Part shown: positions 26,284 through 29,997 of the stretch, piece by piece | How the letters are laid out: each line of letters begins with the position of its first letter | How positions within the stretch are numbered: position 1 is the first letter of the stretch | Assembly: GCA_030690835.1 (NCBI GenBank) | Contig: JAUYFW010000175.1 | Coordinates: 1 to 39,995 of the forward strand | Direction: 5' to 3' | Origin: Sulfurimicrobium sp. | GTDB taxonomy: Bacteria > Pseudomonadota > Gammaproteobacteria > Burkholderiales > Sulfuricellaceae | Length of the DNA stretch: 39,995 nucleotides | The notes under the pieces: generated by a model | Database searches by the model: none | What the model was told of the DNA's origin: nothing | Seen by the model: only the letters and a program-made list of their open reading frames with translations | Position numbers and translations under genes: made by a program

Positions 26284-26666
26284 TTCCCAGTGAGTAGCAT
26301 TAACCCTCCGCTCCTACTCTTACGCATCAACCGATAGTCACTTTTCGACCCGGTGCAGACTGTCGTGGCTTGGGCTTCGCCGTCCGCTTAGCAGCAGGAG
26401 TAGTCAACCAGTTTTGGCAGGTTGGACGGCTTTTCATGCGGTGCCTAGGGTGCAGAAACCTGCATTTCCACTCATGATTGTATTCAATCCACTTGTCGTA
26501 TCGAGCGCAATACGAATTCATCAAATCGCCAACTGTCTACAAAACCACTAGATTCAGCCTGAATAGAATAACGCCTTCGTTCCATCCATTCCGGCTGGAA
26601 ACACTCTTCCGCCCTCCGTCAAGTGACAAAAGTTTGCAAGCCCTTTACCAGTGAAAAGCACAACAA

Positions 26667-26741
26667 TGCATATTGTCTATATGCACGGTTGACATTGCTG
26701 ATGGAGTGTGGGTACAATGCTCACATATTGTACATATGCAC
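26667..26741 (+). promoter_or_regulatory. Sigma70 promoter bracketed by two copies of a CATAT-N5-ATATG operator
   Basis: TGCATAT-TGTCT-ATATGCA (26667-26685); TTGACA 26689-26694; 18 bp spacer; TACAAT 26713-26718; CATAT-TGTAC-ATATG (26724-26738). Confidence 0.8.
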
Positions 26742-26760
26742 ACTATGGAGGTAACAGGGA

Positions 26761-27912
26761 ATGGCTAAGAAAATCACTCAAATGAAAGACGCGCCCGAAC
26801 CCAATCAGACCCAAGGTAGCGGATTACCTGTTCCATTTGCTCTGGAGAAACTTCGGGAGATGATCCTGACCCTGTATTTCCAACAGGTCAGAACGATAGG
26901 CTGGATGACAAACAAACCTGCTGTCGCCTGGGAGATTATTGGCAAGCCACAAGATGCACATGACAATGATTTATTCTCTCTTGATCTCGACCCCGAGCAG
27001 CTTGGGCTTCGCTACGAATCTATTCGCAAAACCCATTTTGCGGAATGCATAGAAAAGATGTACCAGTTCGCCTACTTCGGCATTTTGGATGAAAGCGGGG
27101 AACAGATGGAATATGAAAGCATTTATACGTGGATAACATCCCTACTCATGGACATGAAGAATTCACAAATGTTCTATGAAATGGGAAGCTATTCTGCTGC
27201 ATCCATGACGCTCGACGAAGCGAAGAAATGCTTTCAGGTAGCTGAGCTGGCAAATGCTAGGATAGTTCTGGAAGGAGGTGAAAATTTCTTCATATCTGGA
27301 TTCGGCAGCAACAACAAGGACGACGACTCAATCGGATATAGCGGACTGACCGTGCGTCAAATGGCGCTTCTATCCGGAATGGAGGAAATGAGTATTCGGG
27401 CAGCGGCAAACCCCAAACGAGCTAACCCTTTACGCACCTTCTCTGATGAAGGACGTACCCGCATTTCCATCGAAGCTGCAAAAGCCTGGCTACAAGCCAA
27501 AGGGCGTTATGTGAGCATCACACGCGAATGGGGAACAGGGGAAATCGACTTGGTAAAACGTAGATTTGCATCGGTTAATGAGCTGGAAGAAGCGCTTGAC
27601 TCCAGGTTTCAAATGCTTGCACTACGTGATCAACAAAGAGATGTGCTAGTTGCACAACTTTCTGAAGCTGGTATTAAAGTTATCAAGACAATTGCCAATA
27701 AAAATGGCGAAATTGAAATAGATAGGGCTTGTCTTTCAAACATCAGTCTCATCCATAAGCTGGCAGAGATTCTGGAACTTCCCTCAGATTTACTCACCCT
27801 ACGGGCGCGGGAAGCCCTCGCCAAAGAAGAACTCGCTTCAGTGGAGCGTGAACTTCGGCTTCTCGCCGAGTCACAAAAAATCAGTCCGCAGGAGAAAAAT
27901 AATGATCGATAA
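26761..27912 (+). CDS. Hypothetical protein with predicted central HTH
   Basis: 383 aa ORF, RBS GGAGG upstream; candidate DNA-binding segment LTVRQMALLSGMEEMSIRAAANPKRANPL...RISIEAAKAWLQAKGRY. Confidence 0.85.
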   Translation: MAKKITQMKDAPEPNQTQGSGLPVPFALEKLREMILTLYFQQVRTIGWMTNKPAVAWEIIGKPQDAHDNDLFSLDLDPEQLGLRYESIRKTHFAECIEKMYQFAYFGILDESGEQMEYESIYTWITSLLMDMKNSQMFYEMGSYSAASMTLDEAKKCFQVAELANARIVLEGGENFFISGFGSNNKDDDSIGYSGLTVRQMALLSGMEEMSIRAAANPKRANPLRTFSDEGRTRISIEAAKAWLQAKGRYVSITREWGTGEIDLVKRRFASVNELEEALDSRFQMLALRDQQRDVLVAQLSEAGIKVIKTIANKNGEIEIDRACLSNISLIHKLAEILELPSDLLTLRAREALAKEELASVERELRLLAESQKISPQEKNNDR

Positions 27913-28321
27913 ATCAAGCGTTGCTGCATTTGTTGCTGAACGTATTCGATTAACCGGCAAAGCTCAAACTGAAATCGCATTCGAGGCGGGATTCGAAAAA
28001 CCCAACATGATCACTATGATTAAGCAGGGAAAGACGAAATTGCCGCTTGCAAAAATTGGAGTAATGGCCAAGTCGCTTGAAACCGATCCAACACACCTGC
28101 TTAAGCTGTGCCTGGCCGAATACCAGCCAGAAACCTGGGCTGCAATCAGCCCCTACATGGAAGAAATGCTCACTGGCGATGAGCTTTCTTTGCTACGGTC
28201 TCTTCGTACATGGGTTGGGGCGCCATACCTTGTTGCTCTCACTGAAAATCAGCGAAACAAGCTAGACGGTTTTATGAATTCCATGAAAGACACATCAAAT
28301 AAACCTGAAGCAAGCCACTAA
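27902..28321 (+). CDS. Small Cro/CI-like HTH protein
   Basis: MIDKSSVAAFVAERIRLTGKAQTEIAFEAGFEKPNMITMIKQGKTKLPLAKIGVMAKSLETDPTHLLKL; ATG overlaps the upstream stop (11 nt). Confidence 0.8.
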   Translation: MIDKSSVAAFVAERIRLTGKAQTEIAFEAGFEKPNMITMIKQGKTKLPLAKIGVMAKSLETDPTHLLKLCLAEYQPETWAAISPYMEEMLTGDELSLLRSLRTWVGAPYLVALTENQRNKLDGFMNSMKDTSNKPEASH

Positions 28322-28343
28322 CAACAATCAGAAGGGGAGCGAA

Positions 28344-28613
28344 ATGTCCATGAGTCAACATGCCAGCAAGCGGGCCCAGCAACGGGGTGTTCCACCATTA
28401 ATTATTGACTTGCTTATTCAATTTGGCACCCGTGAATACGATGGCAGGGGCGCAGAAATCTGCTTTTTTGATCATCGTGCAAAAAAACGCCTGCAATCTT
28501 ATGCCGGGGGTCTTATCAGCAACTTAAGTGAACAGCTCGATGCCTATGCAGTTATTTCGGGAGAGGAAGTGATTACAGTCGGGACTCGCCTTAAACGAGT
28601 TAACCGCGTTTAA
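28344..28613 (+). CDS. DUF4258-like small protein (RelE/BrnT-like size and pattern)
   Basis: 89 aa, QHASKRAQQRGVPPLIIDLL...EICFFDHRAKKRLQSYAGG...LDAYAVISGEEVITVGTRLKRV; RBS GGGGAG. Confidence 0.6.
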   Translation: MSMSQHASKRAQQRGVPPLIIDLLIQFGTREYDGRGAEICFFDHRAKKRLQSYAGGLISNLSEQLDAYAVISGEEVITVGTRLKRVNRV

Positions 28614-28635
28614 TTTTTAGGAAAATAAAAACATT

Positions 28636-29430
28636 ATGAATACTCAAACACTTTTTCCAAAATATGCAGAAATCATCCGTAACCTTGATATTGATTCGAT
28701 CAAAGATGTTCAGTCACTTCCGAATAGCCTTCAAATGGTTAAAGATGGAAAGTTGTCCATCTATTACACCCCATTCGATTTTATTAATCCCCTGGCCCGT
28801 ATTGTGCTGGTCGGCATTACCCCCGGCTTCACTCAACTTGTAAATGCACTTCGTGAAGCACAGATACAGATTAAATCCGGTGCCGATCATTTGACGGCAT
28901 TACAAGCAGCAAAGCGTACTGGTGCATTTTCTGGAGCAATGCGCCCCAATCTCGTTGCCATGCTTGATCATGTCGGACTTAATAGATGGCTCGGCATTAG
29001 CAGCAGTGATGCATTATTTAGCAGCGCAAATCATTTGGTTCACACCACCTCAGTGCTACGTCACCCGGTCTTTGTGGATAGTGAGAATTACAATGGCACA
29101 CCCAGTATGATCAAGAACCCGGCCCTTCGAAGCTTTGTGCTGGAACATTTCGCGAAAGAAGCCGCTACACTTAAAAATGCAGTTTTTATTCCACTGGGGC
29201 CGAAAGTTTCCGAGGCTATGGCATGGCTTGCCGCAGAGGGGGAAATTGACGGTTCGCGGGTGCTGGATGGAATGCCCCATCCATCTGGAGCAAATGCCGA
29301 ACGCATCGCATATTTTCTTGGGAAAAAGGGCAAAAGCAGCCTCTCTTCCAAAACCAATTCAGCTAAGTTGGACAGCGCCAAGGCAAGTATGATGGCTAAG
29401 ATGTCTGGGATCAGAAAAGCGGACGAATAA
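28636..29430 (+). CDS. Uracil-DNA-glycosylase-superfamily-like protein
   Basis: 264 aa; motif-1-like ARIVLVGITPGFTQL, FIPLGPKVSEAMAWL, motif-2-like GMPHPSGANAERIAYF. Confidence 0.65.
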   Translation: MNTQTLFPKYAEIIRNLDIDSIKDVQSLPNSLQMVKDGKLSIYYTPFDFINPLARIVLVGITPGFTQLVNALREAQIQIKSGADHLTALQAAKRTGAFSGAMRPNLVAMLDHVGLNRWLGISSSDALFSSANHLVHTTSVLRHPVFVDSENYNGTPSMIKNPALRSFVLEHFAKEAATLKNAVFIPLGPKVSEAMAWLAAEGEIDGSRVLDGMPHPSGANAERIAYFLGKKGKSSLSSKTNSAKLDSAKASMMAKMSGIRKADE

Positions 29431-29607: not shown

Positions 29608-29997
29608 ATGAATGTATGGAACGCCGAATTCGCCGTCGACCTGTTGGCAAAACGGGGCTTGTACTGCCACTACCATAAAGCTAAGGCGGCCTGCTTCCGC
29701 ATCAAAGGGGCGCAACCGCGTGAGTTGTCCATCGCACTGGCACGAAAGGGTGTCGTGACGACTTACGTTAATCTACGATCGGTTTCAGGTGAACTCTTCC
29801 CGGAAAATGGCATTGAAGGCATTGATGTTGTTGAGCGATATATGCGAGGACATAAAGGACTCCAGGAAAATCCTGGGATATCCGGTTCGGTGGCGCGTAA
29901 CAATCCATCATTGAATCCAGCTAGCCACGATGTCTTACGGGTACATGTTCTCGATGAAGCCAGCATCGAAAAATTATTGAAGTGGTATGAAGCTTGA
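29608..29997 (+). CDS. Hypothetical protein, no recognised family
   Basis: 129 aa ORF in the AT-richer accessory region; codon structure plausible, no motif recognised. Confidence 0.5.
   Translation: MNVWNAEFAVDLLAKRGLYCHYHKAKAACFRIKGAQPRELSIALARKGVVTTYVNLRSVSGELFPENGIEGIDVVERYMRGHKGLQENPGISGSVARNNPSLNPASHDVLRVHVLDEASIEKLLKWYEA

What the first reader, a model, noticed from the sequence alone, without database searches (positions are those of the whole stretch)
26640..29430. Candidate undescribed four-gene cassette: two HTH proteins + DUF4258-like protein + UDG-fold protein
Four same-strand genes are tightly packed (11 nt overlap, then gaps of about 22 nt each) behind one strong promoter. They lie in an AT-richer accessory region directly after a PIN toxin-antitoxin pair. 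The cargo combines an uncharacterised 383 aa protein with a predicted HTH, a small Cro/CI-like HTH protein, a RelE/DUF4258-sized protein and a UDG-superfamily-like protein. That layout (regulators, possible small toxin, base-recognition enzyme) fits a defence or element-maintenance module. DNA-glycosylase-based anti-phage immunity is known (Brig1), but I know of no described system with this composition. Operon structure and motifs are seen directly; function is inference.
Basis: partly seen in the sequence, partly recalled or inferred. Interest (0 to 1): 0.8.

Follow-up and report, generated by a model that had tools for sequence, protein, structure and literature searches.

The report
Mobile DNA-glycosylase operon with toxin-family gene
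A small self-regulating operon, shared by distantly related plasmids, viral contigs and chromosomes, carries an undescribed branch of the base-removing DNA glycosylases next to a toxin-family protein, and may be a way for mobile DNA to recognise and damage unusual bases in invading DNA.

Summary
Four same-strand genes (26761-29430; 11-nt overlap, then two 22-nt gaps) follow one near-consensus promoter in a 45-48% GC island of a ~61% GC chromosome, behind a MazE-like/PIN pair. Two copies of a 16-bp operator-like site, found nowhere else in the window, bracket the promoter; a close form sits beside the promoter of homologous operons on a Caballeronia plasmid and in another genome. Gene 4 has a confident UDG-superfamily fold but forms a separate clade: motif A is GITPG with Thr invariant in 37/37 relatives, where described families have D, N, A/G or Q; motif B is SMUG1-like. 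Gene 3 belongs, through its relatives, to DUF4258, a BECR-fold toxin family of unknown activity. Genes 1 and 2 are helix-turn-helix proteins. Genes 1, 3 and 4 co-occur in several orders on plasmids, viral contigs and chromosomes; gene 2 is optional. A second DUF4258 operon carries a different UDG-type enzyme. Best reading: an autoregulated mobile module in which a TA-like pair (1/2 plus 3) accompanies a glycosylase that excises a non-uracil, probably modified base, working like but not shown to belong to the Brig anti-phage glycosylases. Function is untested.

The parts
26670..26685 (+). upstream operator-like site ATATTGTCTATATGCA, 3 nt before the -35 box
   Evidence: only two matches to ATATTGTNNATATSSA (<=1 mismatch) in 39,995 bp, 0.01 expected; close form upstream of g1 in L029 and L018
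26689..26718 (+). sigma-70-type promoter TTGACA-18-TACAAT
   Evidence: 11/12 consensus
26725..26740 (+). downstream operator-like site ATATTGTACATATGCA, just after the -10 box
26761..27912 (+). g1: 383-aa regulator; central helix-turn-helix domain (residues ~195-255, nt 27343-27525) and a diverged Cro/CI-like C-terminal region
27902..28321 (+). g2: 139-aa Cro/CI-type HTH protein (optional component)
   Evidence: PHROG transcriptional regulator E 5e-4; relatives annotated as HTH regulators
28344..28613 (+). g3: 89-aa DUF4258-like protein (BECR-fold toxin family); conserved HA..R..QR and Y..V...T
28636..29430 (+). g4: 264-aa UDG-superfamily protein
28813..28836 (+). g4 motif A, residues 60-67 GITPGFTQ (T62 invariant, Q67 at +5)
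29275..29295 (+). g4 motif B / predicted DNA-insertion loop, residues 214-220 PHPSGAN

Best explanation
This is a mobile, autoregulated module whose effector is a diverged UDG-superfamily DNA glycosylase (g4), coupled to a toxin-antitoxin-like pair. Shown: gene arrangement, UDG fold, operator-like pair, recurrent co-occurrence on mobile DNA. Inferred: g1 (with g2 where present) binds the two sites flanking the promoter and keeps the operon nearly silent. When repression is lifted, g4 flips a non-uracil, probably C5-modified pyrimidine out of foreign DNA and cuts its glycosidic bond, leaving abasic sites that block replication, as Brig1 and Brig3 do. g3, a DUF4258/BECR-family protein in antitoxin-then-toxin order behind g1/g2, is most likely a toxin held by the HTH partner(s), serving addiction and perhaps as a guard or back-up.
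For: g4 model pLDDT 93.9; the best Foldseek hits are SMUG1, UdgX, family-4 and family-1 UDGs (prob up to 0.99, E-values only 6e-3 and weaker). Motif A GITPG: T62 invariant 37/37, Q67 33/37, S139 35/37, H215 36/38. The host has three ordinary UDGs, so g4 is not housekeeping. Read by eye against those host enzymes, the TN of family 4/5 aligns with T137-T138 of g4, so the uracil-reading Asn is lost; Q67 lies 5 residues after the motif A position, as E55 follows N50 in Brig3, where E55 reads the 5-hydroxymethyl group (PMC13160076). Co-occurrence: 15 of 37 g4 relatives have g1 and/or g3 alongside, spread over the g4 tree with at least 6 changes; relatives sit on plasmids (35 records) and viral contigs, and in about 2% of genomes sampled. 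Second DUF4258+UDG operon L102/L120. DUF4258 is listed as a BECR toxin family with antitoxin-toxin order (PMC11980606). An endonuclease/exonuclease/phosphatase-family gene with an Ada-like Zn domain lies 32 nt upstream of g4 on a Pseudomonas plasmid, fitting abasic-site processing. Operators. Defence neighbours in some relatives: Zorya and DUF262 beside g1-g3, Abi and type I RM S subunit, C5-cytosine methylases near g4 in 4 loci.
Against: No activity data. T62 replaces the catalytic D/N of families 1-3, and family 4's Glu position is Ile, so catalysis could be weak or absent. 22 of 37 relatives have neither g1 nor g3 alongside, so these are not required. Brig1 and Brig3 carry an acidic residue (E147, D127) at the base-reading position that is Thr here. 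g3 has no Pfam match alone and its toxicity is untested. PADLOC finds nothing in the cassette. Neighbourhood defence genes were not compared with a mobile-element background.
Confidence: 0.45

Rival explanations
1. A toxin-antitoxin / maintenance module (g1[+g2] antitoxin-repressor, g3 DUF4258 toxin) that stabilises the mobile element; g4 is a passenger cargo gene that travels with it.
For: g1+g3 (or another regulator+g3) occur without g4 in L020, L021, L024, L121; DUF4258 is catalogued as a type II TA toxin family with antitoxin-first order; paired operators are typical of TA autoregulation.
Against: g3 and g4 are directly adjacent, sometimes overlapping, in many lineages and in several gene orders, and a second UDG type has joined DUF4258, which argues for a functional link. 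g1 is far larger than usual antitoxins.
Confidence: 0.27
2. g4 serves the mobile element itself: base-excision repair or counter-defence, for example removing damaged, deaminated or host-modified bases from plasmid or phage DNA.
For: Many relatives are on plasmids and viral contigs, several beside integrases or plasmid replication/partition genes.
Against: Many relatives are in chromosome-sized contigs; the uracil-reading Asn and catalytic D/N are lost; a repressed-looking operon with paired operators and a toxin-family gene suits a harmful activity better than repair.
Confidence: 0.15
3. g4 is a non-catalytic UDG fold that binds a base or DNA and acts as sensor or scaffold for g1/g3 (or a covalent trap as UdgX is).
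For: Invariant Thr in place of the catalytic residue; UdgX shows that a motif A change can go with redirected chemistry (PMC10359453).
Against: Motif B His and the likely pocket residues (Y44, P46, F98, R103, S139) are conserved, as expected of an enzyme; UdgX's motif A (GEQPG) is not present; 22 of 37 have no g1 or g3 beside them.
Confidence: 0.1

Closest known systems
Brig1 / Brig3-BapA anti-phage DNA glycosylases (PMC11078745, PMC13160076)
   Same: UDG-superfamily protein of ~260 aa on accessory DNA, in an operon with other genes; a long stretch between motif A and the base-stacking aromatic (Brig3 N50 to Y97/W100; g4 T62 to F98); a polar residue at motif A +5 (Brig3 E55, matched by Q81 in Brig1; Q67 here).
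   Different: No Brig sequence was available for a direct comparison. Thr instead of Asn at motif A; Thr instead of the acidic base-reading residue; partners are HTH and DUF4258 proteins, not a BapA/ASCH glucosyl hydrolase.
SMUG1 (family 3 UDG)
   Same: Top Foldseek hits; motif B HPSGAN resembles HPSPRN.
   Different: Motif A GITPG instead of GMNPG; about 11-14% identity in the structural alignments; extra helices between motif A and F98.
DUF4258 / RelE-ParE (BECR) type II toxin-antitoxin modules (PMC11980606)
   Same: g3 belongs to the DUF4258 group by its relatives; regulator-first order.
   Different: Partner is a large HTH protein plus an optional Cro/CI protein, and a glycosylase follows.
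Family 4 UDG and UdgX
   Same: Fold; the F98-x-G stretch resembles the PFVG segment of the host family-4 enzyme.
   Different: No GE(A/G/Q)PG motif A; no TNAV.

Membership tests
UDG superfamily | UDG alpha/beta fold | tested here: met
   AlphaFold2 pLDDT 93.9; top Foldseek PDB hits are UDGs with prob up to 0.99, E 6e-3 and weaker; 14/14 relatives match PF03167
UDG superfamily | motif A G-x-x-P-G and motif B with HP[S/A] | tested here: met
   GITPG and HPSGAN
UDG families 1-4 / UdgX | family-specific motif A residue (D, N, A/G or Q) | tested here: not met
   Thr in 37/37 relatives against motifs quoted in PMC10359453; family 5-6 motifs were not compared in full
Brig anti-phage glycosylases | excises a modified base from phage DNA and blocks replication | not testable with these tools
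   needs assay
Brig anti-phage glycosylases | sequence homology to Brig1/Brig3 | not tested
   Brig sequences (OR880862, PX942695) were not in hand; no Brig structure among PDB hits
Brig anti-phage glycosylases | acidic base-reading residue (Brig1 E147, Brig3 D127) | tested here: inconclusive
   by-eye motif alignment puts Thr138 there; no structural superposition was possible
DUF4258 toxin family | PF14076 match | tested here: inconclusive
   window protein none; 9/15 relatives match, best 3.7e-4; one relative annotated DUF4258
type II toxin-antitoxin module | toxicity neutralised by the partner | not testable with these tools
   needs expression test
type II toxin-antitoxin module | antitoxin-like DNA-binding partner in a tight operon with operator-like sites | tested here: met
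known defence system (PADLOC 2023) | match to a model | tested here: not met
   0 hits for the four proteins

The most novel reading that the evidence does not exclude
Addiction-guarded base-excision immunity: a new UDG clade with a Thr-type motif A excises a phage- or plasmid-specific modified base, while the HTH/DUF4258 toxin pair guards it, so that an invader which blocks the glycosylase or the repressor releases the toxin.
Probability: 0.13. Interest if true: 0.87.

Novelty: new variant of a known kind. Interest (0 to 1): 0.6.

Why it matters
Base-excision immunity has only a handful of described enzymes (Brig1-3). This is a separate UDG clade, spread over Proteobacteria and Firmicutes mobile DNA, with a motif A unlike the families compared and a recurrent DUF4258 toxin-family partner. 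If the reading is right it would widen the range of bases that bacteria can police, give the DUF4258 toxins a first biological context, and provide ready test cases on small plasmids.

Tried and rejected
Four-gene unit as the conserved system: rejected, gene 2 is optional. Gene 1 fold: AlphaFold2 with 5 diverged sequences failed (pLDDT 50), not interpreted. Truncation of hemY by the insert: rejected, the congener G004 has the same short hemY. Phage-borne origin: no g4 relative in 50,697 phage records, though 11 viral contigs hold one. PDB homologues by sequence: none credible for g4; the HTH of g1 relatives hits a phage immunity repressor weakly. Searches for g1 in viral contigs: nothing. The A2 profile includes doubtful g1 members, so a narrower HTH profile was used for counting. 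The 129-aa gene 29608-29997 downstream has no Pfam or PADLOC match and no plasmid relative, so it was not counted as part of the module. The L102 enzyme was checked as a possible Brig3-like protein: it has N-P-G-x-x-E, but TN at the base-reading site, so it was not called Brig. hhalign of g4 against the host UDGs gave only partial alignments.

Full report
Observation. One promoter, TTGACA-18-TACAAT at 26689-26718, stands 42 nt before g1 and is the best match in the region. GC falls to 45-48% between flanks of about 61%. The flanks (hemX/hemY on the left, an NADH-type reductase on the right) are syntenic with a complete congener genome at 85-90% identity, but the congener has unrelated genes between them, and in another congener the flanks lie about 1 kb apart; none of the seven congeners searched has g4. 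This is therefore an accessory segment in a variable chromosomal spot. A MazE-like antitoxin and PIN toxin precede it.

Operators. The sequence ATATTGTNNATATSSA occurs twice in the 40-kb window, at 26670-26685 and 26725-26740, directly upstream of the -35 and downstream of the -10; 0.01 matches are expected and no shuffle reached two. Of 70 loci held at that point, only the operons of Caballeronia plasmid p2 (L029) and genome G009 (L018, with its duplicate L004) have a close form (ATATTGTNNATATNSA), again a few bases before TTGAC. Their g1 proteins are 38-42% identical to this one, so the site is conserved across diverged operons. The likely reading is autorepression by g1 and/or g2; binding is inferred.

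Gene 4. Pfam UDG is weak for this protein alone (E 0.0014) but all 14 relatives tested match it, up to 1e-6. An alignment of 12 gives a model of pLDDT 93.9, pTM 0.90, whose top PDB neighbours are SMUG1, UdgX, family-4 and family-1 UDGs (E 6e-3 to 1e-1, TM about 0.4, so a distant relative). The fold assignment is supported. Across 37 relatives T62 of G-I-T-P-G never varies; Q67 is kept in 33, S139 in 35, and H215 of motif B in 36 of 38. Described families have GQDPY, GINPG, GMNPG, GE(A/G)PG or GEQPG (PMC10359453), so this clade is separate from them. Motif B, HPSGAN, is closest to family 3 (HPSPRN). Comparison by eye with the host's own three UDGs places T138 where uracil enzymes have Asn, and F98 where the stacking Phe sits, after an unusually long segment. 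In Brig3 the residue 5 after the motif A Asn, E55, reads the hydroxymethyl group of 5hmC, and Q81 of Brig1 is its counterpart (PMC13160076); Q67 is at the same +5 distance here. These residue equivalences are inference, since no superposition or Brig sequence was available.

Gene 3. Nine of 15 relatives match DUF4258; an Aminobacter relative is annotated so. A 2025 survey lists DUF4258 as a BECR-fold toxin family in antitoxin-then-toxin modules, of unknown activity (PMC11980606). The order g1(-g2)-g3 fits that pattern.

Genes 1 and 2. g1 relatives share a central helix-turn-helix domain (consensus ALLA.M.E.SVRNAA.P...L.T....RT.V...DA..WL..R.GF) and, in several, a C-terminal Cro/CI-like domain. 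The structure prediction of g1 failed. g2 is Cro/CI-like.

Co-occurrence. g4 relatives were found on 35 plasmid records from Proteobacteria and Firmicutes, in 11 viral contigs, in no phage record, and in about 2% of genomes sampled from the class and the phylum. In 15 of 37, g1 and/or g3 lies alongside: g1-g2-g3-g4 (window, Thauera sp. K11 L008, T. humireducens L009), g1-g3-g4 (L006, L010/L029, L026, L063), g1-g4-g3 (L041), g3-g4-g1 (L042, L064, probably L057), g1-g4 (L013, L018, L040) and g3-x-g4 (L011). The g1 assignment is weak in L041 and L063 (E 2e-4 and 2e-3). Junctions overlap by 4 nt in L006, L008, L026, L042 and L057. These loci are spread over the g4 tree (at least 6 gains or losses). 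The background for g3 is about one genome in twelve having any copy, so such adjacency is far beyond chance. g1+g3 also occur without g4 (L020, L021, L024; L121 as g1-g2-g3), and pPNAP04 keeps g3 next to a remnant of g4 (L022). In genome G855 another kind of regulator, a DUF4258 protein and a different UDG-superfamily enzyme (PF03167, 1e-6, above cut-off) form an overlapping operon (L102/L120). The pairing of DUF4258 with a UDG-type enzyme is therefore seen with two distinct glycosylase types.

Mechanism. Shown: arrangement, fold, conserved likely pocket residues, operator-like pair, mobile distribution, repeated association. Inferred: repression by g1/g2, base excision by g4, toxicity of g3. 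The most economical reading is a repressed mobile module with a DNA-damaging glycosylase effector plus a TA-like pair. Supporting context: an endonuclease/exonuclease/phosphatase-family protein with an Ada-type Zn domain encoded 32 nt upstream of g4 on a Pseudomonas plasmid; Zorya and DUF262 genes beside g1-g3 in Nitrosospira; DNA methyltransferases within 5.5 kb of g4 in several loci, four of them C5-cytosine enzymes. No background rate for mobile elements was computed for the last point.

Novelty. No paper in the held library has both DUF4258 and uracil DNA glycosylase. The parts are known kinds; the clade and the combination appear undescribed, within the limits of an open-access library.

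Noticed in passing
L102 671-2549 (same region as L120 2821-4708): Overlapping operon: a different regulator, a DUF4258 protein, and a different UDG-superfamily enzyme with GQNPGGAE motif A and TN base-reading site.
   Followed up: partly
L122 2577-4639; L022 4001-8186: DUF4258 gene with an ADP-ribosylglycohydrolase directly next to it (L122) or about 3 kb on (L022); Brig1 and Brig3 also lie near ADP-ribosyl glycohydrolases in the published islands.
   Followed up: no
L028 565-5223; L098 1465-3103: DUF4258 gene next to RecB-like (TM0106 / DUF2779) nuclease genes, in L028 with a divergent WYL regulator.
   Followed up: no
L014 3799-5717: Endonuclease/exonuclease/phosphatase-family gene with an Ada-type Zn-binding domain, 32 nt upstream of a g4 relative on Pseudomonas plasmid pPniHBP1_1; possible abasic-site partner.
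   Followed up: partly
L009 2112-5774: T. humireducens plasmid carries two g1 paralogues before g2-g3-g4.
   Followed up: no
L026 4001-5269, L044 3920-5149, L048 5001-6158, L046 4311-5657: g4 relatives fused to extra C- or N-terminal stretches of unknown kind.
   Followed up: no
L017 8953-9804; L026 5452-6759; L009 1-727; L041 7944-9194; L042 355-1623: DNA methyltransferase genes near g4 relatives, directly adjacent in L017 and L026.
   Followed up: partly
L111, L116, L117, L118: Congeneric chromosomes hold a WYL-type regulator + DUF4258-like + DnaQ-type exonuclease in a row; function unknown.
   Followed up: no
window 29608-29997: 129-aa gene downstream of the cassette with no family match and no plasmid relative.
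   Followed up: partly
L006 (contig of a 'Dehalococcoidales' MAG): Closest g4 relative (69%) on a 3-kb contig labelled Chloroflexota; probably misbinned betaproteobacterial or plasmid DNA.
   Followed up: no
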